Source: Hydractinia symbiolongicarpus
Lineage: Eukaryota > Cnidaria > Hydrozoa > Anthoathecata > Hydractiniidae
Length of the DNA stretch: 64,000 nt
NCBI RefSeq assembly: GCF_029227915.1
Contig: NC_079876.1
Span: forward strand, 13,580,001-13,644,000
Reading direction: 5' to 3'
Of the stretch, positions 19,263-63,036 are shown one piece after another (within the stretch, counting starts at the first letter, position 1; the number at the start of each line of letters is the position of its first letter). The notes below the pieces were generated by a model. The model was given only the letters and a program-made list of their open reading frames with translations, was not told the DNA's origin and made no database searches. Made by a program: the position numbers and the translations under genes.

Positions 19263-19268
19263 TACGTT
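19263..19268. other. Polinton target-site duplication, left copy
   Basis: TACGTT directly precedes the TIR start AGAGATAGG, and TACGTT recurs at 35155-35160. If the last TIR base T at 35155 belongs to the element, the duplication is the 5-mer ACGTT. If it belongs to the duplication, it is the 6-mer usual for Polintons. Confidence 0.75.
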
Positions 19269-19603
19269 AGAGATAGGAAAAGGCGGATCCTAGTGCAATC
19301 ATGTCAAATAAGCGGGCATCCACATCAAATCAACGTAAAAAAGGCCCATACCACCCCTTAGCGATTAATAGTCTGCGCACACTCCACGTCAAATTATAGA
19401 TCATCCACGTCAAATCAACGATAGAGGAGTCCATAAAATCCATGTGCACTTTACCACTTTACGTTAAATAAGCGGGCATGCTCTATAATATCCGCCCAAA
19501 ACCCCCTCCCCAGCCGTGTCCCCCCTGGCCCCTCCCCGTCCCATGGGTCCCTCCCCACCCTCATCTGTCGTGCCCTATAATTTATAGTGATATGTGTGTC
19601 TAT
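19269..19603 (+). repeat. Polinton left terminal inverted repeat
   Basis: This 335-bp repeat matches the complement of 34821-35155 with about two mismatches by eye. It holds iterated motifs: AAATAAGCGGGCAT at 19306-19319 and 19466-19479, and CCAC(A/G)TCAAAT at 19320, 19384 and 19405. It also contains a G/C-tract-rich inner part. The inner 29 bp encode the last residues and stop codon of the polymerase. Confidence 0.95.
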
Positions 19604-22600
19604 AATGTCCTCTTGCCAGTGTTGTAATACCATCTTCCAAAATTATGCGTTTATCATCATCGGCATTGAGCGCCAGTTTATTTGTTTTCACCGTGTGAAC
19701 ATCATGCTTAATCGATCGAAAGGTCATTTGGGTTCTGTAAATGTTCTCACCCTCAAACAGGCATCTCTTATAATCATCGAAACCTATGGTCTCCCTTACC
19801 ACACATTTCTTCACCCCCTTACACCTCTTACCCTCCCTACCACATAGCTGTTTGTATGCGTAGGTCTTAGCTCTTAGGGCGATGAACTCAGTCATCACCT
19901 TACCACCCAACTCGTCCTTCATCAGCCCAATGATCTTTTTATTCAAACCTAATGGTAGAGGTCTACCATCTTCCTTATCATACCCAGTTGTGTCAAATCT
20001 CGCAGGCACATCGTTCGCGATATCTTTGTAGAAGTCGTCTGTTTTTATGTGGTAAACGAATGAATCCGTATCCATGTAGCAAAGTTTCACATCATCACCA
20101 TATTTCGGTCTCGTGTAATCATGGTGGAACTCATACATAACCATCTTGGATAGATGGAGGATTGTGGGGCCGAGGTAGATCGGTTTGTTCATTTTGATCT
20201 TGATCTTGGACATCTCTATCCCCATCAGTGTTTCCGAGAAACGGATTGCACCCCTGAAGTTTGGCTTCATCACCATTTTCTCATAATTCTTTTGGTTTGT
20301 GGCCAAACGTATATCCTTCTGTCTTCGTTGATTCTCTATTGTCTTACCAAAGACGGAATTGTTCATCAGCTTGAAGAAATCCTTTTCAAAGTCATTCTTT
20401 GACTCCGTGCGCAGCTGTGTATTGAAGTCGATGTAAGGTTTCAACCATGCGCTCTGATCAAACCTCAGTACCCTATGAACCTTATCCAGAACAAGACCGT
20501 GATTCAAAGCTTGAGCAAGCGCACGGATATGAATCACATAGTTCCTCTTGTCCGAAAGACACGGTGTCAGCTTCTCGACACCATTGATAACCTTCCTCTC
20601 GGGCATGAAAGGAAGATCGTTATGTGTGTCATGAAGATCATGTGGATATCTAACATCAACCTCAAGCATGTACCCATTTTCACCGTTTTCCACAGCCAAC
20701 TCTGAAATGAGTTCGGGTGTAAATTTACCGGAATCATCCCACTCAAACCCCCCGGTGGGCATCTTCTGTATCATAGCCCATCCATACAGATTGTTAGCAT
20801 CAAGATACTGTAGATAGGTTGTATCTTCTGAAGTATTATACATATCACCCATATATGGATTATTTGCCTTCGCGTGTCTGTGAACGGCCTGACAGAGACC
20901 GCCCCTAATACCCATCTCCATAAACAGTAACATATCCATATCTGACAACAAATCCAGCTTAACATCTGTCTTTTTCAGGCATGCCTGCCAAGCTAATCCG
21001 GGGGCCGTGTAAAAATGAGCGGGATCTAGTTTATAGTTTCTCAAACATGTCTCTCTGAATGTCTCAAACACATCACTCAGAAGCAGAACATCCGTCTTGA
21101 GATAAATATCATGATAAACGCCCATATTTTCAACTTTCATGTCCTTCCACACCTTCTGGGCATGCGCATAATCGGCATCGCTGATACCATTCATGTTCAA
21201 CTTGCTATAAAAGTCATCTTTCGAAGGAAGCCTGGTTTCATTAAACCTATCGAATGAATCAACATACTCATATGGGTATACACCCTTCCTTCTCATTATG
21301 TTGAATTGCTCATCATTGAAGAATTTTCTAAGGTTTTTACACTGATCATCGGATAGATTGTCAGCCAAGGAACCTAATCCTCTTGACATAAATCTAAATG
21401 AATCGATGAATCTCAGCTTTATCTTTTTGTCTTTGGTCTCACCATTTTTGTTGGTGTATTCACCAACCTTAACATCGGTCGAGAAAGAGATATATTTCTC
21501 TTTATTTTCAGCGATTACACTCATACCACCTTCTCCATACTTCTTCGCAAGCTCTTTGATAAATAGATGCGCATCATATCCGCTCAGATTATGGAAGACA
21601 ACCGGAATATAATTAGGCACCTTGTAACGGAGATTACATTTCATGTGTGCCGATCCACGAAACTTGCCGGTAAAATGACAGTGATCCCTAACCTTGATGT
21701 CATCATCACCAAATTCTCTCATACAGATGTGGCAGTTGGTGGAATTTTCATATCCATCAAGTTCTTCATCGGTTAGATCTTGCATACCAAGTTGTGGAAA
21801 CATGTTGTATAACCTTTTCGCCTCGGAAACCACATGATCCACAAATCGTGGAACACAGTCATCACCACGGTAAAGCTTCAGAGGGTCCAAAACTTCACCA
21901 TGAGCATATTTACTATAACAACAGAATCCGGTGGGGATATGTTTACCAACTTTCTCGGTGGACGATCCACACTCTATCTCTTCAGGTTTTGTAAAAGCTT
22001 CGAAATCGGCATACATGATGAATGGGGCTTTGAGCTGGTACTGACCGTGGGTGAAGGTTAAGGTGCTACCCTCCCTAGGGAGTTGAATATTAACAGCATC
22101 GTTATTCTTACAATACTCAAAGTGCCCATCCCTTTTCTGTTCGCTCGGAAAACCAGAGAGACAATTCAAGCAATAATACTCTTTATTTTTATGCTTTGAG
22201 TTGACCTTGCTCAGGACACCGCTCAGGTTCTTAACAGCGATATAATGCCTCTTATCCCCTTCGCACAGTAAAAACAAAACAACCGTCTTCTTACGATCCA
22301 GATGCTTCGACTTGCGACACATGTAGATACCTTCTATCTCATCTTTTGTCAAAACATGCACAGCGATATCAGGGTTCCTTCTCTCAAACAAATCTATCTT
22401 GTTTAGTGCCATAGGGAAAGATAGACCATCCCAATTATACTTATCATGCTTCCTAAGGATTGAGATTCGTTCAGGGTTATTATTGATCTTACCATGATTG
22501 AGAGCAGCGATAACGGCCCATTCGAAGCATTCATCATCTTCATTTTTAGGATTGATCACGGAGAACTTACCACTGAAATTCTTGGGTAGCGGCAAGTAAG

Positions 22601-23456
22601 AACTACCTCTAGTTAATTTTAGTTTGTGAAAGTCCACATGCATATGTATGATCCTTTCGATTGGGAATCCGCTGGCGGGTAGAGCAGGGTTTTCAATCTG
22701 CTCGATTATCTTATTAAACATACGATCAAAAACATCAGAAATGTCACCATGTGCATGTAGTATCTCCATATAGCTATTGAAAGCTTTATCAACATATACA
22801 CACGGGGCATCAGCCGAGCTGGTGTCCTCCCTTACCCATTTCACCCACAGGGTCGACTGAGTCTTCAGCGACTTCTTCTGCCCGAGCACGTCACTCATTA
22901 GCCTCTTAACGACATGCTCGACCTTTTCGAGAAAGACCTTGACATTCTTCCCACCATCCGAGTTTATTTTGAAACGTTTGTATGAACCTACAAAAGCTTC
23001 TTCAACGGGGGTATAGGGGTTTTCCTCCTCTTCCTCCTCCACCTCTTCCTCTTCCTCTCCACTGCCCTTTTTATACAAACCCATGATCTTATCCTTCATG
23101 GTTTTGAAAGCTTTGCTCGCTTTCTCCTTAATAGCCTTAGGTACATGATTTATTAACCAGTCTCTCCATTCGATCAACTTGCTTTTCACAATAGGTCTAG
23201 TTTTAGCCATTTCTTGCTCTTCAAACAACTCTATGTCCTGTGCCGGTATGGGTCTAAGAATCGGTATGGGTCTATTTGGTCTCGGTGCTGGTACGGGTCT
23301 AGCGGGTCTAGGCGCTGGTACCGGTCTAACCGGTGCTGAAACGGTAGTTGGTCTCAATAATTCGATAATCTCGGCCTTTCTGAGCTTTGCGGAGCCATGT
23401 AGGCCGCGTTCTCTAGCGAGAGCTCTTAATTCGGAAACTGTATTTCTCGAAGTCAT
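19575..23456 (-). CDS. POLB: Polinton protein-primed DNA polymerase B
   Basis: Intact 1293-residue family B DNA polymerase of the protein-primed type that replicates the element from its ends. From the N-terminus: a SAP-like helix-turn-helix (residues 5-35), a Pro/Arg-rich repeat (40-72), an acidic stretch (133-146), and a conserved cysteine-containing domain (about 305-405). A zinc finger follows (C429, C432, H445, C449). The 3'-5' exonuclease has ExoI at MYADFEAF (D484, E486), ExoII at NLSGYD (D628) and ExoIII at YLKTD (Y785, D789). An HNH/endonuclease-VII-like finger sits inside it (C575, C578, DHCH 591-594, H604, C607). Polymerase motif A is DANNLYGW (D886), motif B is NNSVFGKT (1032-1039) and motif C is MDTDS (D1129, D1131). 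All catalytic residues are present. The start follows a TATA-like TATATAAAA 40 bp upstream. The C-terminus lies inside the left TIR. Confidence 0.95.
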   Translation of the reverse strand: MTSRNTVSELRALARERGLHGSAKLRKAEIIELLRPTTVSAPVRPVPAPRPARPVPAPRPNRPIPILRPIPAQDIELFEEQEMAKTRPIVKSKLIEWRDWLINHVPKAIKEKASKAFKTMKDKIMGLYKKGSGEEEEEVEEEEEENPYTPVEEAFVGSYKRFKINSDGGKNVKVFLEKVEHVVKRLMSDVLGQKKSLKTQSTLWVKWVREDTSSADAPCVYVDKAFNSYMEILHAHGDISDVFDRMFNKIIEQIENPALPASGFPIERIIHMHVDFHKLKLTRGSSYLPLPKNFSGKFSVINPKNEDDECFEWAVIAALNHGKINNNPERISILRKHDKYNWDGLSFPMALNKIDLFERRNPDIAVHVLTKDEIEGIYMCRKSKHLDRKKTVVLFLLCEGDKRHYIAVKNLSGVLSKVNSKHKNKEYYCLNCLSGFPSEQKRDGHFEYCKNNDAVNIQLPREGSTLTFTHGQYQLKAPFIMYADFEAFTKPEEIECGSSTEKVGKHIPTGFCCYSKYAHGEVLDPLKLYRGDDCVPRFVDHVVSEAKRLYNMFPQLGMQDLTDEELDGYENSTNCHICMREFGDDDIKVRDHCHFTGKFRGSAHMKCNLRYKVPNYIPVVFHNLSGYDAHLFIKELAKKYGEGGMSVIAENKEKYISFSTDVKVGEYTNKNGETKDKKIKLRFIDSFRFMSRGLGSLADNLSDDQCKNLRKFFNDEQFNIMRRKGVYPYEYVDSFDRFNETRLPSKDDFYSKLNMNGISDADYAHAQKVWKDMKVENMGVYHDIYLKTDVLLLSDVFETFRETCLRNYKLDPAHFYTAPGLAWQACLKKTDVKLDLLSDMDMLLFMEMGIRGGLCQAVHRHAKANNPYMGDMYNTSEDTTYLQYLDANNLYGWAMIQKMPTGGFEWDDSGKFTPELISELAVENGENGYMLEVDVRYPHDLHDTHNDLPFMPERKVINGVEKLTPCLSDKRNYVIHIRALAQALNHGLVLDKVHRVLRFDQSAWLKPYIDFNTQLRTESKNDFEKDFFKLMNNSVFGKTIENQRRQKDIRLATNQKNYEKMVMKPNFRGAIRFSETLMGIEMSKIKIKMNKPIYLGPTILHLSKMVMYEFHHDYTRPKYGDDVKLCYMDTDSFVYHIKTDDFYKDIANDVPARFDTTGYDKEDGRPLPLGLNKKIIGLMKDELGGKVMTEFIALRAKTYAYKQLCGREGKRCKGVKKCVVRETIGFDDYKRCLFEGENIYRTQMTFRSIKHDVHTVKTNKLALNADDDKRIILEDGITTLARGHYRHTYHYKL

Positions 23457-23495
23457 ATCGGGTTGTGATATACTATATGTGGACCTTTAATATGG

Positions 23496-23504
23496 TTTTA
23501 TATA
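23496..23504 (-). promoter_or_regulatory. TATA-like box upstream of POLB
   Basis: TATATAAAA on the minus strand lies 40-48 bp before the polymerase ATG. A similar TATATATAAAG lies just upstream of the SAP-like gene ATG (25003). Confidence 0.4.
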
Positions 23505-23573: not shown

Positions 23574-24492
23574 TCAATTATATTGTTTAATGACAAGATC
23601 GATGGATGCGCGACATATGGGGCATTTATCCCCCCTATTCTCCAATTTATATGCACATGATAGACAGCAGCAGCAATGTCCTGTTCTACCATGAACAATG
23701 GTTGCGGTCTTTCGTTTAGAAAGACAGATTATGCATTTTTCCGATTCAACCGGATCATCATCCTCATCATCATCTTCATAAACTCACATCATCCTCATCA
23801 TCATTCACATCATCCTCATCATCCTCATCATCCTCATCAATATTTTGAAAATATCTCCGTACGCAAAATCGGCACCAACATTTGGGATAAGGGCCATAAT
23901 CATAATCACCATCTTCAAAATAATTATAATAATGGCCCTTATATGATAAGTATTTTAGCAATGGGGTTATTAATCTGATGTTCACATCCTGTTTATAATC
24001 AATGGATCCGTACCGAGTCTCACCATAACCCTTGGTATGATTACGGCTATAACCCATATCTTCAAACCATTGTTGGCTATAAAACCCACCCAATTTATGC
24101 CTATTCACATGTCTATTTGCAACAATAGGTACATATCCAGGAAGTACTTCGAACTGTGGTTCATTAGGAGCGTCAACAGATGTTGATACAATATACCGTG
24201 TCAAATGGTTTATAATCCGTCGATCCTCATCACCCAAGTCATTCTTCAGTACACTTTCACTTATTTCGAGGTGTTTGGCTATACCTCTTATGTTGTCGGG
24301 GACCAGTTCATTATTTATGATCCGGGTTTCGTATTCAACTTTTCTTACCCAATCACTTGGATATCCGGGTTCCGAGATATCTTCGCTTGGATATCCGGGT
24401 TCCGAGATATCTTCATCGTAGAAAAATCTTCGGAATAATATCCAGTGTATTTCGAGAGGTGGGGAGGGTTCGTTATCAACTGTCGATGTCAT
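23574..24492 (-). pseudogene. Acidic protein with MDM2-type C-terminal RING finger, frameshifted
   Basis: Frame 1 (24492-23776, 238 residues) begins MTSTVDNEPSPP, carries a duplicated EDISEPGYPS, then a Tyr-rich region, a CWCRFC motif and a long Asp/Glu tract, and ends VSL*. The tract continues in another frame, open from 23783 to the stop at 23574 but without its own ATG. That frame ends in a RING finger with CIIC, VHGRTGH, CLSC and CPIC. The eight zinc ligands have the same spacing as the C2H2C4 RING of MDM2/MDMX (C-x2-C-x10-H-x4-H-x3-C-x2-C-x10-C-x2-C). The protein ends 11 residues after the last Cys, near where MDM2 ends. Acidic region plus C-terminal RING is also the MDM2 order. The likely role is a ubiquitin E3 ligase acting on host factors (inference). 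The one-base offset at about 23780-23790 could be decay, an assembly error or recoding. Confidence 0.75.
24357..24416. repeat. 30-bp tandem duplication inside the acidic-protein gene
   Basis: Two exact 30-bp copies, each starting TTGGATATCCGGGTTCCGAG, give the repeated peptide EDISEPGYPS. The length is a multiple of three, so the frame is kept. Confidence 0.85.
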
Positions 24493-24657
24493 GCTTGGCT
24501 ATGACATACGATTGTGTAATCTTTAACCCAATTTTTAAAAATCGTGCTGAAGGGTTGTGAGTGTCCTAGTTTGTGGTTGCCCCACCATGCTAAAATTGTA
24601 GTAAAACACGCTAAAACACACATACATCGATAGACCATGGGTACCCACCCACCAACA

Positions 24658-24697: not shown

Positions 24698-25003
24698 TCA
24701 CTTGGATCTTTTGTCGTTATAACGTTTTTGAGATTTTAGATATGCCTCCCTGTTTTTCGACCTCCACCTTGAACAGTATCCATACCATTCCCGTTTGGTA
24801 TCCAGATCTATGGTGTAAGATGGGTCAAGATCATTCTTCTCAATCACCTCAACCAGTTTAGCCTTTTTCATCCCGGTGATATACTTCACCCCACGGGATT
24901 TAGCAACCTCTCGCAACTCTCTCAGTTTCATCAATTTGTAGTCGGGTACACCACCATCGGTGGTATCACAATGTAGATCAGTTTGAGTAGCCACGTCAGA
25001 CAT
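24698..25003 (-). CDS. Small SAP-like protein
   Basis: 101 residues. Residues 24-60 (KLMKLRELREVAKSRGVKYI followed by TGMKKAKLVEVIEKND) fit a SAP/Rho-N-like helix-extended-loop-helix fold, normally used to bind nucleic acid. The C-terminus is strongly basic (KNREAYLKSQKRYNDKRSK). The polymerase of the same element also starts with a SAP-like segment, so the element carries two. A DNA-binding or packaging role is plausible but is inference. The ATG is preceded by TATATATAAAG, and the gene is divergent from the integrase with a gap of 93 bp. Confidence 0.75.
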   Translation of the reverse strand: MSDVATQTDLHCDTTDGGVPDYKLMKLRELREVAKSRGVKYITGMKKAKLVEVIEKNDLDPSYTIDLDTKREWYGYCSRWRSKNREAYLKSQKRYNDKRSK

Positions 25004-25096
25004 CTTTATATATAATCAGTAAAAATACATTTAAGCACTTTTATCGTACTACATCATAACAAAAAGGAGATAGATAAAGGTGTGCATAAATAAAAC

Positions 25097-26080
25097 ATGT
25101 CAAACTCTAAACTTCAAGAGACTTACTATCAACCTCAAAATTTATGGAAAGGACAAAAGGCTGTTCAGAATTTAAGAGGATTCGGTTTCAAGCCAAAGGA
25201 GATTAAGAAGTGGCTATCAAAACAAGCATTTTGGCAAGTACATTTACCCTCTCCAAAACATGTTGAAAGACCACATTATGAAGTTACCACCCCTAATGAT
25301 TTACATCAATTCGATTTATTGTACATGCCCGGTGACATACTGTATGGTAATAAATATAAGTACATTTTGTAGGGAATCGATGCTGCTTCCAGATACAAAG
25401 TAGCCCGACCTTTGAGGAGTAAGAAAGCCAAAGAGGTTGCCGCTATGATTGAGGACATCTACAAGGCAGGACCATTAACTTATCCGAAAACTTTCCAATG
25501 TGATAACGGTTCAGAATTCAAAGCAGATGTAACAAAGCTGTTGGAGAAGCATAAGGTTGAAATTAAAAGGGCGACTACAAAATATAAGCATACGCACACA
25601 GCTTTTGTTGAGGCGTTGAACAAGATACTTGCGGAAAATCTATTCAAAATACAAGATGCTCAAGAACTGAATGATTCGGAAAAGGTATCATCTACATGGG
25701 TTAAGCATCTGTATAAACTGATTGATAGGCTAAACGATACAAAGACGCAGATGATTGGTATGAAACCAAAAGATGCTATTATAATGAAAGAGGTGCCTCT
25801 TGCTAAACGAGAAAATTATCCACCTGAAGTAGAATTACCTAAAGATGGCCTGTATAGATATCTACTACAACCCGGTGAAGAGCATGATGATGGGCGGAGA
25901 CGGGCAACCGATAGAATATGGTCGAAAAACACATATAGATTGCGTGAGGTAATAGCGCAACCTGGTAACCGTGTAATGTACTATGTTCAAGACGGACCCG
26001 GACGGGCTTTTATAAAAGAGGAATTGATGTTAATACCTGAAGATACAGAATTACCTCCTGATTATGTGCAAGGTTGGTGA
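25097..26080 (+). pseudogene. INT: Polinton retroviral-type integrase, interrupted by one TAG
   Basis: A DDE integrase that inserts the element into host DNA. The frame is continuous from ATG 25097 to the stop at 26078-26080 (327 codons) apart from TAG at 25370-25372 (codon 92). Catalytic residues are HQFDLLY (D73), QCDNGSEFK (D136) and AFVEALNK (E172), giving the classic D,D-35-E spacing. A basic, chromo/SH3-like C-terminal part follows (TDRIWSKNTYRL, about 270-327). The stop falls just after YKYIL and before GIDAASRYK, in the catalytic core, so the two remaining frames are 91 residues and a long second part. It could be a point nonsense mutation or readthrough. Everything else in the frame is intact. 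Confidence 0.9.
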
Positions 26081-26280: not shown

Positions 26281-26874
26281 CTAACTTTGTTCCTGATTTA
26301 CTGTCTTTCTGAGGCTTTGAACCTCGGCCATTAGACTTTTTTCAAACTGGTTGCGCGTTTCGCTCTCCATCTTTCTGTCGGTTTTCGTAATTTTGTCCAG
26401 AGCTTCATAGTATATACCACACAGGGTTTGAAATTCAATGTGACTAATGTCATCATTATTCAGGGCCCGCGAGAAGGAGTTTTCAAACACGGCGATGGCA
26501 GACGTTGCAACATCATATAATTTCATGACTTTGTCCAGTTTGCTCTGATATCTTTTAATCAAGGCCGTGATAGAACCTGTGAAAATGGATCCCGACAGTG
26601 CTACGGCACCCAATCCGACAGAAACGGGTATCCCAATGAGTGTAGCACCTGTTACCACCGAACCTATGCCGGAAGTGATGGTTAGGGCCGTGGCGCCGGC
26701 ATTTAGAATCACAAGTCTGTGTAATTTCTTGTTGTATTTCTCATACTTTGTGTTGAATTTTTTTTTTAATTTTATCAACTCCTCAAGATGAGAGTTCACG
26801 GTATTAGTATTAAACTTGTCCCGCTCGCTCGAATACTCAGGAGCCGTGGGTAGCTTCGGATAAATCTCTGCCAT
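26281..26874 (-). CDS. Polinton membrane protein, paralogue 1
   Basis: 197 residues with an N-terminal helical, likely coiled-coil part containing NSHLEELIKLKKKF (about 29-42). A long Gly/Ala/Val/Ile hydrophobic hairpin follows (about 53-105), probably two membrane passes. A C-terminal helical part has HIEFQTLCGIYYEALDKI. The layout and spaced motifs match the neighbouring gene at 26910-27371, pointing to a tandem duplication inside the element. I do not recognise a named family. A virion membrane or membrane-active role is only inference. The upstream region shares an ATTTAGAGGAaAGTTTTTC motif with the paralogue. Confidence 0.75.
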   Translation of the reverse strand: MAEIYPKLPTAPEYSSERDKFNTNTVNSHLEELIKLKKKFNTKYEKYNKKLHRLVILNAGATALTITSGIGSVVTGATLIGIPVSVGLGAVALSGSIFTGSITALIKRYQSKLDKVMKLYDVATSAIAVFENSFSRALNNDDISHIEFQTLCGIYYEALDKITKTDRKMESETRNQFEKSLMAEVQSLRKTVNQEQS

Positions 26875-26887
26875 TAGTTATTACAAA

Positions 26888-26909: not shown

Positions 26910-27371
26910 CTATGGTTTATCTAGTTTATCCAGATCCTTGAGAGTTCTGTGATATGTATCACACAAACTTTCAAAATCGGCTCTACTGATGTATGATGAA
27001 AAGTTTGGTAGCGTTTTATCGAACACATCGATGGCATTTTGTACAACGCGATATGAGGCTCTGACTTTGTTTTGTTTCTCCCGATATATCTTAACATATT
27101 CGGTGGTAACCGCACATGAAGCAGAGCTTAATAGACACATACCCGAACCCCAAACTGCGCGGCCTTTTCTAATAATGGCCACTGCGGTCGCTATCGAGCT
27201 GGTAACGGCCACGATTCCGGATATACCCCCCATAAGCGCCGATATAATCAGAGATCTGCCGTATTTGTCTATCCTGTCATAGAACTTATGTCGTAATTTC
27301 ACCAGCTCCTCAAGTTGGGAATTGGATATATCTGTTTTAAACATTTCCACAGGACTAGAATGCTCTGCCAT
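26910..27371 (-). CDS. Polinton membrane protein, paralogue 2
   Basis: 153 residues. It shares with the 197-residue neighbour the order helical N-part (NSQLEELVKLRHKF), glycine-rich hydrophobic hairpin (about 42-90, with LIISALMGGISGIVAVTSSI) and C-terminal helix (ISRADFESLCDTYHRTLKDL). It is shorter by the C-terminal coiled tail. The two genes lie head-to-tail 35 bp apart. Divergence between them is large, so the duplication is older than this insertion. Function unknown. Confidence 0.75.
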   Translation of the reverse strand: MAEHSSPVEMFKTDISNSQLEELVKLRHKFYDRIDKYGRSLIISALMGGISGIVAVTSSIATAVAIIRKGRAVWGSGMCLLSSASCAVTTEYVKIYREKQNKVRASYRVVQNAIDVFDKTLPNFSSYISRADFESLCDTYHRTLKDLDKLDKP

Positions 27372-27385
27372 TTCTATTATCTTAA

Positions 27386-27405
27386 GAAAAAACTATCCTC
27401 TAAAT
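27386..27405 (-). promoter_or_regulatory. Shared upstream motif, copy 2
   Basis: ATTTAGAGGATAGTTTTTTC on the minus strand, 15-34 bp before the ATG at 27371. The 44-bp gap to the divergent plus-strand ATG at 27416 must also hold that gene's start signals. Confidence 0.5.
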
Positions 27406-27415
27406 AAATAAAATA

Positions 27416-27928
27416 ATGGCGGACATTGATATTGATCCGTTTGGTGAACATGGTCAAACCGACGAGGGTGCCGATGAAACCACGCCCCTGGTACCGAAGG
27501 AACGCACACGGGTACAGATACACACACCCGATGAAAAGGAGACATCATTCGGTGGAGGCTCCTCTCAACGCGCTAGAGTTACTAGTGAGCGGGTTAAATC
27601 ACTCTATGAGGTGCTACTAACTAAATATCCAAACGAGGACCCGAGTGTGATACATACCGACCTGTTTGAGATTCGTGGTGGTGAACTATACTACAAGGGT
27701 GATAACAGACCGCTGACACATGGTGGATCTCTAAGGTCTACCGGTACCATTGCAGATTTACTTGGCAAGAAAAGGCTGCGCAGTTTGGGGTTCGATATAC
27801 CGAAAGGTAGTATAACCCCCCGACAGGCCGCCGGACTAAACAAAATAGAAGAGAGACTACCGTCACCTGATAAAATAGAAACGGCGACCGATATAGAATT
27901 AGAAACAATATCCATAAGGAACAAATGA
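27416..27928 (+). CDS. Conserved-looking Polinton protein of unknown function (170 aa)
   Basis: The N-terminal third is acidic and low in hydrophobic residues (MADIDIDPFGEHGQTDEGAD). A folded-looking central part with RVKSLYEVLLTKYPNEDPSV and FEIRGGELYYKG follows, then a charged C-terminus. No catalytic motif or membrane segment is visible. The stop overlaps the next ATG as ATGA (27925-27928), which points to coupled expression with the following membrane-active-looking protein. A virion-internal or scaffold role would fit the context but is only inference. Confidence 0.7.
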   Translation: MADIDIDPFGEHGQTDEGADETTPLVPKERTRVQIHTPDEKETSFGGGSSQRARVTSERVKSLYEVLLTKYPNEDPSVIHTDLFEIRGGELYYKGDNRPLTHGGSLRSTGTIADLLGKKRLRSLGFDIPKGSITPRQAAGLNKIEERLPSPDKIETATDIELETISIRNK

Positions 27929-28499
27929 AGTTGAAGGAGTTGGAAGATCCCTCATACACGGATGAACAAAGGGAGCAGGTGGCCGAGAGGTTGGAAAAGC
28001 TAAACGATGAGTTGGAAGCCAACCAGGATGCCATCGATATCCTTAAGGGTGAACTTAACACCAAGATAAAAAGCATAAAGGAGACAATCGCCAAGGTACT
28101 TAGCAAAGATACAACATTGGGTGAAAAGATACGAACGCTATTCCGTGAGCAGGGTATCACCGTTGTCAGTGTACTAACGGCATTTGGTATGGTTAACGGC
28201 CTTCTAGTAGAAGCTTTGACACCCGGGGTGGGGGGTCATCCACCAGTAATACAAAAAATCATGAAAAAACAGAGGGTGGTGCGAGGGAATGGATAAAGAA
28301 CAAGCTGAGCGCACTAGGATCTCTCCTGGGTAGATTAGCCAGTGCCGCGACTGCATCACTACCGGGTATAATTAGATCAATCGTATCGTGGATCTTCAAT
28401 AGAGCAAAAGAGGCTGTTGGTTGGTTGAGTCAAAACCTTTGGGCTTTGATAGTTGGAATCGGAGGTCTGATAAACACCTACATGGTTACAAAGCGTTAG
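27925..28499 (+). pseudogene. Coiled-coil/amphipathic membrane protein, frameshifted in a G-run
   Basis: The first frame (27925-28296) gives a charged coiled coil (TDEQREQVAERLEKLNDEL, residues 12-30) and a hydrophobic segment ending VEALTPGVGG. Just downstream of the six-G run at 28230-28235 a second frame takes over and stays open to TAG 28497-28499. It encodes EWIKNKLSALGSLLGRLASA, amphipathic and Trp-rich helices, and a final membrane segment (LWALIVGIGGLINTYMV). The single-base offset in a homopolymer suggests either decay or a base-call error. The architecture (amphipathic helices plus a C-terminal anchor) resembles membrane-lytic virion proteins in layout only. A hairpin follows 17 nt after the second stop. 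Confidence 0.7.
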
Positions 28500-30442: not shown

Positions 30443-31039
30443 CTAGCAAATCACGTGGGTTCTTGGATGTTCCATCCTCATGACTAAATGTGTATATTTA
30501 CCATCTTTTAGCCTTTCCTTAACCTTCTGTATCTCTGATGATTCAATGACATCATTCTCCTCGTGGATAGTTGCGAGATCATGTCTATCCTTCGGATACC
30601 ACACATATAACATTTTTGCCTGCCTTCGTAAGTTCTTCGGTATCGCGGTGTATGATTGTGTGAGTAGCCACATGGTGTGGTTTTGATGCCGACCGCTGAT
30701 GGCCAGCTCCAGCAATGGTTGCCTCTTTTTGTCCAGTTTCTCATCCGCGATGATATCGTCGATCAGGAATAATGTTTTGTATCCCGCGAATAAATCCGTC
30801 ATCTTTTGGATCCATTCATACAACATACCTCTGGGCTCAATTAGAATAACATATCTATCCCTCCAGAACCATTTTCGACACATATATGTCTTATTCCATC
30901 TTAATGTTGGACATATAATCACAATGAAATCGAAGTGATCAAAGTATTCACTCTCTAGTAGCGTTACTACGCGTTTGGATTTTCCGCAGCCGGTTGGACC
31001 GACGAATAGTGCCGTGTGGGGATCTTTCATGTAGTCCAT
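30443..31039 (-). CDS. ATP: Genome-packaging ATPase (FtsK/HerA, A32-like)
   Basis: This ATPase drives element DNA into capsids in the related virus families. Walker A is GPTGCGKS near the N-terminus, Walker B is LFLIDDII, and a downstream motif is WLLTQSYTAIP with a conserved Gln. About 198 residues is normal for Polinton packaging ATPases. The frame opens at 31066, but I choose the Met of MDYMKDPHTALF (31039), which starts one base after the major-capsid stop. The ATPase-capsid gene pair is the typical Polinton morphogenesis core. A strong hairpin follows the stop. Confidence 0.92.
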   Translation of the reverse strand: MDYMKDPHTALFVGPTGCGKSKRVVTLLESEYFDHFDFIVIICPTLRWNKTYMCRKWFWRDRYVILIEPRGMLYEWIQKMTDLFAGYKTLFLIDDIIADEKLDKKRQPLLELAISGRHQNHTMWLLTQSYTAIPKNLRRQAKMLYVWYPKDRHDLATIHEENDVIESSEIQKVKERLKDGKYTHLVMRMEHPRTHVIC

Positions 31040-31040
31040 C

Positions 31041-32360
31041 TTAATATAGTACATCCATAATTTCACCGTTTTGAATATTTAATTGAGCATCCATTATTAG
31101 ATATATGTAAGCGTTTAAAGATCCCGCTGCCTCGGCCGTCTTTTCAACTTGCAGTGTGATACCCTCGCTCGCATTTTCAATCCGTCGACCAGTCCCGTGC
31201 AGTGAGTTTTCATCTATGGTTCTGAAATCCAGCCATAGAGCATATTTCGTGGTTAGGTAGTCCGCTACCTTCACATCATGTAGTTGCAGATGTTTTTGTA
31301 TTTCACCGGCGTTGCCATCCCTTTGTTTGCCCTCCGCAAAATACTTGCAAATTTCACCATAATGCTCAAACGGTTGCATTCCCTGAGCGAAAAGTTGGTT
31401 GGGTTTACCCTCAACTATGGCGGATACCTTTTTGATCTTAGGATTGTAGAACCTACCTGTATCTCGTTTGTAAACTTTCTCTTCCTCAAACAGAACCAAT
31501 ATACCCTTCAGGGACTTGCATGGTGTATTGAATGACCAATTCCACGTTGTGTCTGACTTATCCATCCTAATTTGTCTATGTCTCAAGAATCTGTCATAGA
31601 GCACGGCCATGTTTTGGTATTCATTTGAAATGAATCTGGCGAGTGTGGGTTGTGTCACAATCTCATATTCCAGAGATATGTTGGAGATTTTGTATTTAGC
31701 ATCCGGCGCCGGTGCCGTGGCGGAACCTGAAGGTTTGGTAGGTGTTGATAATACTACCCTGTCATAATTGTTGAATGTTATCTCATAACACAGCCTATTA
31801 CCTAATCCAGCCTGATAATATGGGATCGTGCTATCTAACATTTCAAAATCTAGTGGTATGGTGAACTTGTTTTTGTATGCATCATAAATAGCTTTGTCCG
31901 CTACCTCCGATGCGTCTTTATCCGCGGCTCCAACTCTCAGTTTCATACAGTTTTCTGTACACCCTTCATCAAAGATGATACCTTGTCTTATTGCATTTCT
32001 TTTTTCAGACTTGGTTAACCATAAATCTCTGTAGCACCCGAAAAGATCAAAGTCATCAATGCTCAGAATCTCGGTACCCTCGAACTTGATGGCCAACTTT
32101 TTAACAATTGCCCTCCCTATGTTAGAGACCAATGTTCTCTTCGTGTCGGCTTTTGACTCGAGATCAATGTCGAAACTTATTTTCGAAGTACCAGGAACAA
32201 TGACATCATCGTTACCTAAATTAGGGAACCTAATCAGGAGTAACTGGTTCTGATCAATCTCACTTGGGTTGTGAGTGACAATTACTTTTTGATGCGTTCC
32301 TTTTACGCCATGTGCGGTTCTAAGTGAACGCTCTGGGTTTAACTTTTTCCCGTATTCCAT
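31041..32360 (-). CDS. MCP: Double-jelly-roll major capsid protein
   Basis: 439 residues, intact. The length, position beside the ATPase and penton-like gene, and segments such as QNQLLLIRFPNLGNDDVIVP, YYQAGLGNRLCYEITFN and MQPFEHYGEICKYF fit the Polinton hexon-like capsid protein, which forms the pseudohexagonal lattice. Two beta-rich halves are seen, roughly residues 25-235 and 236-439, joined by a Pro/Ala-rich stretch (KPSGSATAPAPD). The assignment rests on family resemblance and gene order rather than a run comparison. No frame damage is visible. Confidence 0.85.
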   Translation of the reverse strand: MEYGKKLNPERSLRTAHGVKGTHQKVIVTHNPSEIDQNQLLLIRFPNLGNDDVIVPGTSKISFDIDLESKADTKRTLVSNIGRAIVKKLAIKFEGTEILSIDDFDLFGCYRDLWLTKSEKRNAIRQGIIFDEGCTENCMKLRVGAADKDASEVADKAIYDAYKNKFTIPLDFEMLDSTIPYYQAGLGNRLCYEITFNNYDRVVLSTPTKPSGSATAPAPDAKYKISNISLEYEIVTQPTLARFISNEYQNMAVLYDRFLRHRQIRMDKSDTTWNWSFNTPCKSLKGILVLFEEEKVYKRDTGRFYNPKIKKVSAIVEGKPNQLFAQGMQPFEHYGEICKYFAEGKQRDGNAGEIQKHLQLHDVKVADYLTTKYALWLDFRTIDENSLHGTGRRIENASEGITLQVEKTAEAAGSLNAYIYLIMDAQLNIQNGEIMDVLY

Positions 32361-32404
32361 GCTATTCCATATTACTTTTTATTTTATTTTACTTTAATTC
32401 GGTA

Positions 32405-34797: not shown

Positions 34798-34822
34798 ATC
34801 TTTACTTGTTTCTGGTAAAGAT
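34798..34822 (+). terminator. 3'-end hairpin before the right TIR
   Basis: Perfect 8-bp stem ATCTTTAC / GTAAAGAT with a 9-base loop. It differs at two positions from the integrase hairpin at 26107-26131. It begins 19 nt after the last stop and touches the TIR start. Confidence 0.6.
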
Positions 34823-35155
34823 AGACACACATATCACTATAAATTATAGGGCACGACAGATGAGGGTGGGGAGGGACCCATGGGACGGGGAGGGGCCAGG
34901 GGGGACACGGCTGGGGAGGGGGTTTTGGGCGGATATTATAGAGCATGCCCGCTTATTTAACGTAAAGTGGTAAAGTGCACATGGATTTTATGGACTCCTC
35001 TATCGTTGATTTGACGTGGATGATCTATAATTTGACGTGGAGTGTGCGCAGAATATTAATCGCTAAGGGGTGGTATGGGCCTTTTTTACCTTGATTTGAT
35101 GTGGATGCCCGCTTATTTGACATGATTGCACTAGGATCCGCCTTTTCCTATCTCT
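34821..35155 (-). repeat. Polinton right terminal inverted repeat
   Basis: Complement of 19269-19603 over 335 bp, with about two mismatches seen (near AATATTCTGCG and CAAGGTAAAA). It ends CCTATCTCT followed by ACGTT. It carries the same iterated motifs as the left copy but no gene end. Confidence 0.95.
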
Positions 35156-35160
35156 ACGTT
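35155..35160. other. Polinton target-site duplication, right copy
   Basis: TACGTT at the outer edge of the right TIR, matching 19263-19268. The first T may instead be the terminal TIR base. Confidence 0.7.
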
Positions 35161-38949: not shown

Positions 38950-39349
38950 GTCCAACCCTGGGTCTGTCAACCCAGATAAAATAGTAATGGGCTCATTTCA
39001 TCAAGGTCATTCTAGATTTGGAGAATCAACAGGTAGGCAATGCGTCTGCAATGCTTTGTGGGCCATCTGTTACCCTTCTATTGCGTCTGTGCGTTACTGG
39101 ACTGAATGGGATCTTGATCGTATTTTGACACTAGGGAATGATATTTACGTCAGCTTAGGTTACACCAGTCAATATCTTGCTTTAGACGAACTGCCCAATT
39201 CAATTGCAACTGAAAACGGGAATATTCAAATTGAAAGTCAGATTCCTATTTATTTGAATTTTCGAGAAATAGTACTTCCTTTCTCCGTGCCCAGTAATAT
39301 GCCAATTATCTCACGCTATCTCGCAGTGGAAATCAAGCATAAGAAGTAA
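38950..39349 (+). CDS. Exon with cysteine-protease-like (USP/OTU-like) domain start
   Basis: Open from the acceptor-like GACGTTTAG|TCC to TAA 39347-39349. It reads NPGSVNPDKIVMGSFHQGHS, then GESTGRQCVCNALWAIC and later WTEWDLDRILTLGNDIY and LALDELPNSIATENG. The pattern QGH.RFG...G.QC..NAL..I resembles the catalytic-Cys start of a ubiquitin-specific or tegument-type cysteine protease domain often carried by transposon genes. Only the N-terminal half is seen here, and the expected His/Asp part is not. It could be the last exon of the integrase-derived gene or a separate transposon fragment. Confidence 0.45.
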
Positions 39350-51074: not shown

Positions 51075-53705
51075 CGTATTATAGTGATAAAGTTTTTGAT
51101 AGGTAATAGGTTTGTCACTTCTCTGTCAGTTTATGCTCCACAGTGTAAACTCAGTGAGGAAGATAAAAATAAGTTTATGATGAGTTAATAGCAGTCACAT
51201 TAAAGTTTGAAGACACTGAACTTGTCATGGTGGGCGGTGACTTTAATGGTCATTTTTGGAAGTCATCTGAAGGTTATAGAGGTGTGCATGGAGGCTATGG
51301 ATTTGGGGGCCGAAATAAGGAAGGGGAGAGATTGCTTGAGTTTGGAATGGCAACGGACATGGTGGTTTGTAACACATCATTCAGTAAGAGACAGAGTAGA
51401 CTGATAACATGAGTCAGGTGGTTGTAAGACACAAATAGATTACTTCCTGGTTAGAAAGTCAGACAAGAAAGTTGTGAAGGATGTGAAAGTTATATCGGGG
51501 GAAGAGTGTGTTTCCAAGCATAGGTTGCTGGTTTGCGATGTGATCTTGAAGAGTGTTAAAAAAGCCAAGGGAAAGTACAGGCCTGGTCGTAAGGCCTGGA
51601 AGCTGAAAGAAGAGATTGTACCAAGACAATTTAGTGCAAATGTTCAGCAGTTAGCCCACAATGGTCAATGTGATAGTGACAATGTTGAAAGTACTTGGAC
51701 TAATTTGAAGAATTGTCTTCTCTGTGGGTGGAAGAAAGGACCTGCTAGACATAGACAGACCTGGTGGTGGAATAATGAGGTTGACCAGTGTATAAAGGAA
51801 AAGAGGAAACTTTGGAAAGAGTGGAAGTCAGGTGGTAGTAAAAATATTTACTTAGAAGCCTAAGCGTCGTGCTCATACAGCAGTGTATAAGGCAAAATCA
51901 GAAGCAGAGAGAAACAGATTTGCAGATGAGTTAAGAAGGGAAGACCAGCGCAATGAGGTATTCAAGATAGCAAAGCAAATGAAGAAGACTAATCAAGATG
52001 TTGTAGGTGAGAAGTGTATACGTAATGATGAAGGTGTTTTGGCTAGCACAGAGGAGGAGAAAAGGGTAGCTTGGAAGAATCATTATCAGAGGTTGCTTAA
52101 CACTGAGTTTGATTGGGACGAGGATAATTTGTCTGATGATGATGTTGTAGAAGGGCCAGCTATGCAGATCAAGACAGAATGGGTAGTGGAGGCTATTAGA
52201 CAGTTAAAGTTTGGCAAGGCTGCAGGAGTATCAGGTATTGTTGCAGAGATGGTAAAAGCATCTGGATATATTGGAGTTGAGCTTATTACAAGTCTTGCTC
52301 ACCAGATTATAAAGGATGGTGCTATTCCGAGGGAGTGGCAGTCGAGTGTAGTAGTGAATTGTTTCAAGGGCAAGGGTGATGCATTAGAAAGGGGTAACTA
52401 TAGAGGTTTGAAGTTGGTTGATCAAGTAATGAAAGTTATTGAAAGAGTGATTGATAAGTTACTTAGAGAAGGAATTGATATAGATAAGACGCAATTTGGT
52501 TTTGTTCCAGGGCGGGGCACTACAGATGCAATATTTTTACTCAGACAGCTTCAGGAAAAGTATTTAGAAAAGAGAAAGAATCTCTATTTTGCCTTTGCAG
52601 ATTTAGAGAAAGCTTTTGATAGAGTGCCACGTAAAGTTATTTGATGGGCTATGAGAAAATTAGGTGTGGATGAGTGGCTAGTTACGATGGTAAAGTCTAT
52701 GTACAGCAATGCTAGAAGTTGTGTCAGGATTAACGATTCACTTAGTGATGAATTTAGTGTAAATGTTGGTGTACATCAGGGTTCTGTACTTAGTCCTTTG
52801 TTGTTTATTCCAGTCTTAGAAGCGCTGTCGATGGAGTTCAGAACAGGTTGTCCATAGGAGTTATTGTATGCAGATGATTTGGTTCTCATAGCAGAGTCGA
52901 TGGAAGAATTAGTTGAAAAGTTTGAGAGTGTGGAAGAAAGGACTAGAAGAAAAAGAGCTAAAGGTAAACACAGCAAAGTCTAAAGTCATGATTAGTAGCA
53001 TTGCAGCCAAGTGTGACCTTGTAGTTGGAAAGTGGCCTTGTGGAGTTGAGAAAGGGGTTGGTAGTAACACAATTTTTTGTCAGACTTGTAAGCATTGGGT
53101 GCATAAGAAGTGCAGTAGTATTGGTTGAAGGTTAAGAGCTGACATTCAGTTTGTATGCAAGCATTGCAAAGGTGAGATTATAGAGAATGAAGTATTTCCA
53201 GCTTTAATGATGTACAACAGTGGTCATTAGAGATAGTTGAGAACTTCTGTTACTTAGATGATATGTTGGGCAGTGAAGGGGGTGTTGGAGGAAGTTTTAC
53301 TTGAAGGATAGGTTCTGCTTAGAAAAAGTTCAGAGAGTTACTTCCTTTGTTGACTAGCAGAGTCTTGTCAATTGAGGTAAAATGTAGGTTGTATAAGGCC
53401 TGTGTAAGAAGTTTTATGTTTTACGGTAGTGAGACAAGGGCAATGAAGCAGGAAGATCTTGACCGTTTAGAAAGGAATGATATGAGAATGGTTAGGTGGA
53501 TGTATAACGCCAGTCTGAGAGACAGAAAGAGTTCAGATGAGCTAAAAAGCAGGCTAAGTATCCGTAGAATTAAGATGTTATTAAGATAAGAAGATTGAAT
53601 TGGCTGGGACACTTGGAAAGAATGGAGGAGGATAATTGGGTAAGAAAGTGTAGAGACTTGATTGTTCCTGGGGCAAAGCCCAGAGGCAGACTGAGAAAGA
53701 TGCAT
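51075..53705 (+). mobile_element. Degenerate LINE: endonuclease, reverse transcriptase, finger
   Basis: A 5'-truncated non-LTR retrotransposon. The AP-like endonuclease half shows SVYAPQC, VMVGGDFNGHFW, QIDYFLVR and SKHRLLVCDV (51120-51545). RT follows with KGDALERGNYRGLKLVDQV, QFGFVPGRGTTDAIF, ADLEKAFDRVPR, GVHQGSVLSPLLF and the catalytic YADDLVL (52370-52890). A PHD-like finger follows (IFCQTCKHWVHKKCSSIG, 53070-53127), then the C-terminal LYKACVRSFMFYGSE and LERNDMRMVRWMYNASLRDR block. Stops and frameshifts separate the pieces, so it is dead. The end near GAKPRGRLRK loses similarity at about 53700. Confidence 0.85.
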
Positions 53706-61342: not shown

Positions 61343-63036
61343 AAAAGCAATTAAACAAGATGAGCTCAACAAATGCAACATGTCAACTAGTGTTGAGTAT
61401 AGCTATCTGCAGCATTATACTGTGATACCTTCATTGCTGATAATCTTTGTACTTTATGCTTATGAACATTATAAAACTAGACAGGTTAAAGTTATTGCAC
61501 CATTTCTGTTTCCACTGGACAATGATAAGAATCGCTTCATGGTAATACTTGCTTTTGCATCAATGATTGGAGATATTGTGAATCTTTTAATGAACAGTTT
61601 CACTGTCCTTGTGTTTCTGCCTGGGGTTATTGGGCAGGCTTTTTGTGGTACTATTTATATTATAGAGATTGGACTTATAAACTTTCCGTTATTTGCTTGT
61701 ATTAATTCTTCATATGTTGTCATGGCGTATGTTTTTGGTGCATTGTTTACATTGTGGAAATTAATTTTTGTGTTGTTACAGTCTTGTTATTACTCCTGCT
61801 CCTTTAATGTTACGGAACTTGTTTTGGTAAATGTTATGGAAAACTTACCCAGCATTTTAAGCATGTTGGCTATTTTTGGAATATTTGTTAAAAATTGTTA
61901 CATGAATTTGAAGCAAGGAGTGTACTGCAGACCGTTACTGGAGCATAGACTAGTGAACGACTATCAAATTATTTACATGAATAAAGCGCTTAATGTCCTT
62001 TCAAGAGACGCTGTAGATTTTCATAGCAGCAACTTCCTCAACAGATTGTACAGCAGATACAGCAAGCCTTGGTTTAAGTTTTCTACTGTGTTTTTATTAT
62101 CTATTGTGGTTATCGTGATTGTGTATTATTATCTGGCTGTTTTATCCATATATGGTTTCAGTAAAGCAAATGGAATTCTTCGTACATCACTGGAGTCTAA
62201 TATCAATTCAACCCAAAACATATACCCAACACTTAAGAAAACAATGGAAGGTTTTTACATTTCATTTTATGTTTCCTTTGCTGTAACAGGAATAGTGTAT
62301 GGTCTGCTACTGTTTCACTTTATCTATTCACACCGTGTCAAATGTGTTAACTTTATATGCTGGCAAAAAAACTGATATTTCCAAACTTGTTAACTATCGA
62401 TTAATGGTTTATTACAACTTATTATTTCCTGGTTATTTGGTTGCATACATGACCTGGGGGATGATTGATTTTTTCATTGTATTTTTAATTTTGTTCTTCC
62501 TGATATATGGATTTATTGTTTTGGCAGTTGATTTTCCATCTGTTCAAGAAGTTGCGGAAAATCTTTTAAGGTACCTTGCATCATACTTGCTTATGCCTTT
62601 GATAACTTATCTCCTGCAATTACTGCTGGAATACAAATTTTTCACTGTGAAGCCCTTATCAACAATTGCGATCTATGTAAGAAATTTGAAAAATTATCAT
62701 ATTGCCATGTACTTTTTCTTTTTCTTCAATATCGTTATTGGTGCTGTATCATGCTTATCCAGATCTTTCAGCATTTTGTTTCTTGGACAAATTGACCATA
62801 CGGCAATGATTTCCAAGTTTTTCCAAAAATTTGATAGTGGTTTTTTAGCATACATTTGTTTCTTGCATGCTCAAGCTTCATATAAAAACCAAATTATGAG
62901 ATATTTTTGTCAAGTTTTATTGAATGCATCTTGCAAGAGCGATTCAACTATTTTAGAATACGGTTATTGTTTGTTCATTGATTCAAGATGTATTGTTCGC
63001 AGACAACACATTGTTAACTCAGTTGGTTTTAAGTGA
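61343..63036 (+). pseudogene. STRA6-like multipass receptor, large terminal exon with one frameshift
   Basis: A polytopic membrane protein resembling the STRA6 / retinol-binding-protein receptor family, which in vertebrates moves retinol across the plasma membrane. The exon opens after the acceptor TTCTTTCTTTAG (61342) and its frame continues upstream of the Met at 61380, so an earlier exon is expected. Family-like stretches are VIAPFLFPLDNDKNRFMVIL, IEIGLINFPLFACINSSYVV and TLYAGKKTDISKLVNYRLMV. At least eight strongly hydrophobic segments are visible. The frame shifts by one base near 62342 (between HRVK and LTLYAG), then runs to TGA 63034-63036, about 550 residues in total. A poly(A) signal AATAAA lies at 63169. 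A lone indel in good coding sequence suggests a base error or a very young pseudogene. Confidence 0.65.

What the first reader, a model, noticed from the sequence alone, without database searches (positions are those of the whole stretch)
23574..23783. MDM2-type RING finger encoded inside a Polinton
The open stretch ends in a RING with CIIC, VHGRTGH, CLSC and CPIC. Ligand spacing equals the C2H2C4 RING of MDM2/MDMX exactly, the VHG.TGH core is kept, and the chain ends at nearly the same distance past the last Cys with the penultimate-region Tyr kept. It follows a long acidic tract, as in MDM2. I know of no described Polinton MDM2-like ligase. It suggests capture of a host p53-pathway regulator, or convergent evolution toward it.
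Basis: partly seen in the sequence, partly recalled or inferred. Interest (0 to 1): 0.92.

Follow-up and report, generated by a model that had tools for sequence, protein, structure and literature searches.

The report
MDM2-type ubiquitin-ligase RING in Polintons
Virus-like DNA elements in this genome carry their own gene for a protein-tagging enzyme domain of the kind found in the cancer regulator MDM2, kept intact by selection and apparently switched on with the element's DNA polymerase, although its closest host relative found so far is a different ligase rather than MDM2.

Summary
On the minus strand, 23574-23783 encodes a C-terminal C2H2C4 RING with MDM2's ligand spacing, close to MDM2 (58.8 bits) and MDM4, far from the next solved RING (29.6). 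It lies in a 15.9-kb Polinton whose copy here is damaged: the RING frame has no start codon and is out of frame with its N-terminal half; the integrase has an in-frame stop. The own genome has at least 150 scored matches. Of 45 loci read, 44 are Polintons; in 36 the RING gene lies just upstream of the polymerase gene. The RING is under purifying selection (pN/pS about 0.25), C-terminal in all 41 Polinton copies read, and joined to differing N-terminal parts, often SAP-like. A promoter-like motif before it is shared with the polymerase gene, suggesting an early gene. The other locus is a host gene with C1/ZZ repeats and a RING 65-75% identical to the Polinton RINGs; vertebrate MDM2 is 41-49%. 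No p53-binding or MDM2 zinc-finger domain was found in the proteins scanned. So: an MDM2-type E3 ligase gene by inference, probably not a captured MDM2. The host's own MDM2 could not be searched.

The parts
23574..23783 (-). Open frame holding the C-terminal MDM2-type C2H2C4 RING (P0001); no start codon in this copy
   Evidence: Pfam PF13920 7.4e-11
23754..23839 (-). Acidic tract (3-bp repeat) in which the reading frame of this copy changes
23776..24498 (-). N-terminal half of the same gene (P0002, 240 aa stop to stop, first ATG at 24490-24492), no known domain; one open frame with the RING in relative L004
24503..24536 (-). Promoter-like motif 10 nt before the first ATG of the RING gene
23467..23499 (-). 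Same motif 10 nt before the ATG of the polymerase gene
19575..23486 (-). Protein-primed type B DNA polymerase (PolB) with N-terminal SAP/Rho_N-like module, directly downstream of the RING gene
   Evidence: Rho_N 3.6e-4, Endonuclease_7 1.5e-4, both under the Pfam cut-off; polymerase identity read from its motifs (recalled), no Pfam polymerase hit
24698..25015 (-). Small SAP/Rho_N protein
   Evidence: Rho_N 1.6e-7
25094..26080 (+). Retroviral-type integrase with an in-frame stop at 25370-25372; L002 and L003 read through this place without a stop
   Evidence: (rve 3.7e-7, 30.8 bits, cut-off 32.6)
30443..31078 (-). Packaging ATPase
   Evidence: Pox_A32 8e-7
31041..32378 (-). Major capsid protein
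   Evidence: Capsid_N 0.008, under the cut-off: weak
19268..19603 (.). Left terminal inverted repeat
   Evidence: 336 nt, 2 mismatches
34821..35156 (.). Right terminal inverted repeat

Best explanation
The stretch is the C-terminal RING of an early accessory gene of a Polinton family that is abundant in this genome. Relatives with open frames encode a protein of about 150-300 residues: an N-terminal part (one or two SAP-like modules, the P0002-type domain, or an acidic FGSWAD-type domain), often a Pro/Arg-rich linker and an acidic stretch, and a C-terminal MDM2-type RING with its short tail. Shown: the RING class, the place in the elements, purifying selection, the shared promoter-like motif, and the likeness to a host C1/ZZ-RING gene. 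Inferred: the protein dimerises through the RING and its tail as MDM2 does, binds ubiquitin-charged E2, and marks a target chosen by the N-terminal part; the SAP-like modules would place it on host or element DNA early in the replication cycle, most likely to remove a nuclear host factor that limits replication. The RING probably came from, or shares an ancestor with, the host C1/ZZ-RING ligase. The window's own copy is a damaged member.
For: RING class: MDM2 58.8 bits, MDM4 49.3, next MUL1 29.6; yardstick MDM2 to MDM4 69.5 bits and to the best other RING 22.2; an HMM of MDM2/MDM4 gives 60.5 bits against a maximum of 27.3 among 2000 shuffles that keep every Cys and His. Abundance: 150 scored of 173 candidates in the own genome, 149 of 150 without an internal stop (the 150 include the window copy and the host locus). 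Context: PolB match in 44 of 45 loci; in 36 of 45 it starts 22-652 nt downstream of a RING on the same strand. Open frames: 38 of 41 Polinton copies read have 140 or more residues stop to stop; 11-13 residues follow the last Cys in 41 of 41. Selection: 32 distinct RING sequences, pooled pN/pS 0.269; 22 nearest-neighbour pairs 0.236, changes by codon position 19/15/56. Regulation: two motif hits in the 64-kb window, each 10 nt before the ATG of the RING gene and of PolB; 88 hits in 45 loci, 28 before RING proteins, 27 before PolB; 0.0 expected per simulated element. Modules: Rho_N (SAP-like) plus RING in 8 of 10 relatives' RING proteins, 6 above the Pfam cut-off. Host relative: 65-75% identity to 31 Polinton RINGs; branch separating host C1/ZZ plus Polinton from MDM2/MDM4 98/83.
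Against: No biochemical or structural test: the single-sequence fold was uninformative (mean pLDDT 45.5). The closest RING pairs (pS below 0.05, 22 pairs) show pN/pS 0.84, so young copies decay. The window copy is frame-split with no start codon. In 8 of the 44 Polinton loci the RING is farther from PolB or on the other strand. The motif at the strictness used precedes 28 RING proteins only, 6 of 88 hits precede none of the expected starts, and the fetched stretches cover late genes only in part. The tree rests on 53 columns, its bootstrap had not settled, long branches are flagged, and the forks inside the host-plus-Polinton group are unresolved. Direction of transfer is not shown. No target is known. 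No relative was found in IMG/VR or prokaryote genomes, so spread beyond this genome is untested.
Confidence: 0.7

Rival explanations
1. A captured host MDM2 that lost its SWIB and zinc-finger domains and still acts on the host p53 family, alone or by pairing with host MDM2.
For: RING near MDM2/MDM4; C-terminal tail and Tyr kept; acidic stretch before the RING in many copies.
Against: No SWIB or RanBP2 zinc finger in the proteins scanned; the host C1/ZZ RING is much closer than vertebrate MDM2; the acidic runs vary and are lacking in several copies.
Confidence: 0.12
2. A zinc-binding assembly module without ligase activity, for example a scaffold of the replication complex through SAP-DNA contacts.
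For: Similar SAP/Rho_N-like modules occur in PolB and the small SAP protein; the gene sits with PolB and shares its motif.
Against: Residues recalled as E2-contacting or linchpin in MDM2 (Ile before the second Cys, CP, Arg after the last Cys) are kept in the 33 distinct Polinton RING peptides, and the tail length is constrained.
Confidence: 0.15
3. An inert remnant: the stretch in the window does nothing.
For: Fits this copy as read: no start codon in the RING frame, split frame, stop in the integrase.
Against: Cannot explain selection and open frames in the family; the terminal repeats differ at only 2 of 336 places, so the insertion looks recent.
Confidence: 0.1

Closest known systems
MDM2 / MDM4 (MDMX) RING domain
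   Same: C2H2C4 ligands with identical spacing, VHG.TGH core, C-terminal position, short tail with the Tyr
   Different: No SWIB or RanBP2 zinc finger in the proteins scanned; basic KKLKKR stretch not kept; 41-49% identity
Host gene with C1/ZZ repeats and an MDM2-type RING (own genome C12:20932320-20942961)
   Same: RING 65-75% identical, CCCLSCA core and VIK/R tail shared, short acidic stretch before the RING
   Different: Multi-exon host gene by its splice signals, with C1_2/ZZ repeats; the Polinton frames are uninterrupted and carry SAP-like or other N-terminal parts
Polinton/Maverick and adintovirus accessory genes (including the motif-defined Oncoid class)
   Same: Accessory gene beside PolB and integrase
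   Different: A term search in the main text of PMC11071296 (passages only) found 0 mentions of MDM2 and of ubiquitin; its Oncoid class is defined by short linear motifs
Viral RING E3 ligases, e.g. the equine herpesvirus 1 RING (1chc)
   Same: Virus-encoded RING
   Different: A different RING class: 1chc scores 22.2 bits to MDM2 and is not among the 60 of 63 matches shown for P0001

Membership tests
MDM2-type (C2H2C4) RING domain | Eight ligands with MDM2 spacing and VHG.TGH core | tested here: met
MDM2-type (C2H2C4) RING domain | Scores to MDM2/MDM4 well above other RINGs | tested here: met
   58.8 and 49.3 against 29.6 bits; controls
MDM2-type (C2H2C4) RING domain | C-terminal position with a short conserved tail | tested here: met
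   11-13 residues after the last Cys in 41 of 41 Polinton copies read
MDM2 family (whole protein) | N-terminal SWIB-like p53-binding domain | tested here: not met
   None in P0001, P0002 or ten relatives' RING proteins scanned with Pfam
MDM2 family (whole protein) | RanBP2-type zinc finger before the RING | tested here: not met
   Same scans
MDM2 family (whole protein) | Closest host relative is the host MDM2 | tested here: inconclusive
   Closest host RING found is the C1/ZZ gene; the search for the host MDM2 did not complete
MDM2 family (whole protein) | Binds and ubiquitinates p53-family proteins | not testable with these tools
   Needs biochemistry
Polinton gene family | Recurs in related Polintons near the polymerase gene | tested here: met
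   PolB in 44 of 45 loci (36 within 652 nt downstream on the same strand), integrase in 39 of 45 stretches
Active RING E3 ligase | E2-dependent ubiquitin transfer | not testable with these tools
   Inferred from conserved residues only

The most novel reading that the evidence does not exclude
A clade of animal Polintons has evolved a family of early, DNA-tethered MDM2-type ligases, some elements with two, that pair through the RING tail with host MDM2-type RING proteins (the C1/ZZ ligase or MDM2) and so redirect or block a host stress or antiviral pathway, including p53-family control. That would be a tumour-virus-like strategy in an ancient virus-like lineage.
Probability: 0.15. Interest if true: 0.88.

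Novelty: new variant of a known kind. Interest (0 to 1): 0.64.

Why it matters
Polintons are usually described by replication and capsid genes; a selected, multi-copy family of MDM2-type ligases in them would suggest host-interaction genes like those of DNA tumour viruses. It offers a natural set of N-terminal swaps on one RING, a promoter-like motif for sorting early genes, and a host C1/ZZ ligase as a candidate source or partner. It also warns that MDM2-type RINGs occur outside MDM2, so a RING alone does not imply p53.

Tried and rejected
Rejected: convergence on MDM2 by chance (2000 shuffles that keep Cys/His reach at most 27.3 bits against 60.5); a lone chance frame (150 scored genome matches); an intron over the frame change (judged by eye: the donor-like site in the tract leaves only a few bases before the RING frame).

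Led nowhere: protein searches with P0002 (2811 candidates, none scored) and P0001 (none; only proteins of about 38-120 residues could be seen); IMG/VR scans and prokaryote genomes: no relative; phage records: none; NCBIfam and PHROGs: nothing significant; single-sequence fold: uninformative. Paper searches: three answered; searches failed and met the cap. Papers: PMC12085832 and PMC11071296 were seen as passages only; the adintovirus founding paper was not held (failures 92, 96). Any statement that such a gene is undescribed rests. The search of the own genome with an MDM2 RING, meant to find the host MDM2, was sent many times between and never answered; one PF02201 request did not complete either.

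Dropped rows: the strict RING scan missed six Polinton loci (L010, L016, L024, L040, L041, L043); 3 of 41 copies with other spacing were left out of the pN/pS count and 2 of 33 distinct peptides out of the identity count.

Full report
What is there. The reverse strand of 23574-23783 reads as 69 residues ending in a RING: CIIC, VHGRTGH, CLSC, CPIC, then 12 residues to the stop. The ligand steps are those of MDM2. Against all solved chains it scores 58.8 bits to MDM2, 49.3 to MDM4 and 29.6 to the next protein, MUL1. As a yardstick, MDM2 itself scores 69.5 bits to MDM4 and 22.2 to the best other RING. An HMM of MDM2/MDM4 gives 60.5 bits; apart from the RING frame itself the best of 1112 window fragments gives 11.0, and 2000 shuffles that keep every Cys and His reach 27.3 at most.

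The element. Terminal inverted repeats of 336 nt (2 mismatches) at 19268-19603 and 34821-35156 enclose an element of about 15.9 kb with polymerase, small SAP protein, integrase, packaging ATPase and capsid genes (the polymerase was named from its motifs, by recall, and the capsid match is weak). The two ends do not show a 6-bp target duplication. The RING gene lies directly upstream of the polymerase gene on the same strand.

This copy is damaged. The RING frame has no start codon. The 240-residue frame in front of it (23776-24498), which ends in the acidic repeat, runs in another frame. The integrase has an in-frame stop where L002 and L003 have none. In relative L004 the same N-terminal part and RING are one open frame of 289 residues, so open copies exist.

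The family. I read 45 loci (L001-L028, L032-L048): 44 have a polymerase match, 39 an integrase match; four of the five Polinton loci without integrase are only 3.2 kb long. In 36 of 45 the polymerase match starts 22-652 nt downstream of a RING on the same strand; in the other 8 Polinton loci it is farther or on the other strand. I group nine loci (L009-L016, L026) as a second type: L009-L016 have two or more RING matches near the integrase, on opposite strands in 7 of 8. A strict motif scan read 41 Polinton copies in 38 loci (six loci with altered motifs were missed); 38 of 41 have stop-to-stop frames of 140 residues or more, and all 41 end 11-13 residues after the last Cys. N-terminal parts differ: one or two SAP-like modules, the P0002 type, or an acidic FGSWAD type. 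Of ten relatives' RING proteins scanned, 8 match Rho_N (SAP-like; 6 above the cut-off), all ten match the RING family PF13920, and none matches SWIB or a RanBP2 zinc finger. In L005 and L006 a P0002-like protein is a separate gene, so parts have been joined and exchanged.

Selection. Among 32 distinct Polinton RING sequences of standard spacing, pooled pN/pS is 0.269; 22 nearest-neighbour pairs give 0.236, with changes at codon positions 19/15/56. Pairs with pS below 0.05 give 0.84, as expected if inserted copies decay. Host C1/ZZ against Polinton RINGs: pS 0.88 (saturated), pN 0.14.

Regulation. A motif (AAAA, TTAAAG, RTATRTC at set spacings) occurs twice in the whole window, each time 10 nt before an ATG: that of the RING gene and that of the polymerase. 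In the 45 loci it occurs 88 times: 28 before RING proteins, 27 before polymerase, 3 before P0002-like genes, 24 before truncated or other SAP-like starts and 6 elsewhere; 0.0 are expected per simulated element in 300 simulations. Not every RING gene has it at this strictness, and the fetched stretches show late genes only in part. I infer that the RING gene is early, co-expressed with replication.

Origin. The one locus outside Polintons (C12:20942725-20942961) appears to be the last exon of a host gene whose upstream exons on the same strand encode C1_2/ZZ repeats (Pfam), with fitting splice signals judged by eye. A recalled human SWIB sequence finds nothing better than E 2.8 in the 30-kb stretch up to the RING. 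Its RING is 65-75% identical (mean 71%) to 31 Polinton RINGs; two vertebrate MDM2 RINGs are 41-49% identical to them, MDM4 (recalled) 35-47%. A tree puts host C1/ZZ and Polinton RINGs apart from MDM2/MDM4 with 98/83 support, on only 53 columns, with long branches flagged and the bootstrap not settled. So MDM2-type RINGs exist in this host outside MDM2, and one of those is the nearest relative found. The host MDM2 itself could not be sought: the tool did not complete.

Mechanism. By analogy with MDM2 (recalled): RING dimer with the C-terminal tail, E2 contact by the Ile before the second Cys and the CP motif, Arg after the last Cys as linchpin. These residues are kept in the 33 distinct Polinton peptides; the host RING has Val for the Ile. 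The N-terminal part would choose the target; SAP-like modules suggest DNA or chromatin. This is inference; no activity was measured, and the fold was uninformative.

What is known. Answered literature searches (listings) and passages of two papers (PMC12085832; PMC11071296) showed no Polinton or adintovirus MDM2-type RING; the single Polinton plus MDM2 hit concerns a SWIB/MDM2-domain protein of an algal virus. Most searches failed, so novelty is only lightly tested.

Noticed in passing
25370-25372: The integrase of this copy has an in-frame stop where L002 and L003 have none, although the terminal repeats are 99% alike: a young but damaged copy.
   Followed up: partly
27404-28296: Two frames that overlap at 27874-27928 here have their matches about 160-170 nt apart in L009 and L022; whether this is a rearrangement or a frame change is not resolved.
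   Followed up: no
L009-L016: A second Polinton type in the same genome has two or more RING matches near the integrase, on opposite strands in 7 of 8 loci.
   Followed up: partly
L023/L031 (own genome C12:20932320-20942961): A host gene appears to join C1/ZZ repeats to an MDM2-type RING; what it is called was not searched for.
   Followed up: partly
24503-24536 and 23467-23499: A long promoter-like motif 10 nt before the ATG marks RING, polymerase and SAP-like genes in these Polintons; it may define an early class.
   Followed up: yes
26281-26877 and 26910-27392: Two neighbouring genes of the element match each other weakly (about 29-33% identity in relatives), apparently an old duplication.
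   Followed up: no
38951-39349: Open frame outside the element matching the herpesvirus tegument N-terminal family (PF04843, 5.9e-6).
   Followed up: no
own genome C11:29433554, 29511296, 29589038 and C3:29900006, 30000582, 30101659: RING matches recur at about 77.7-kb and about 100-kb steps, suggesting large tandem duplications or assembly repeats.
   Followed up: no
62296-63036 and 51856-52644: A retinol-binding-protein-receptor match and a reverse transcriptase fragment lie in the host DNA beyond the element.
   Followed up: no
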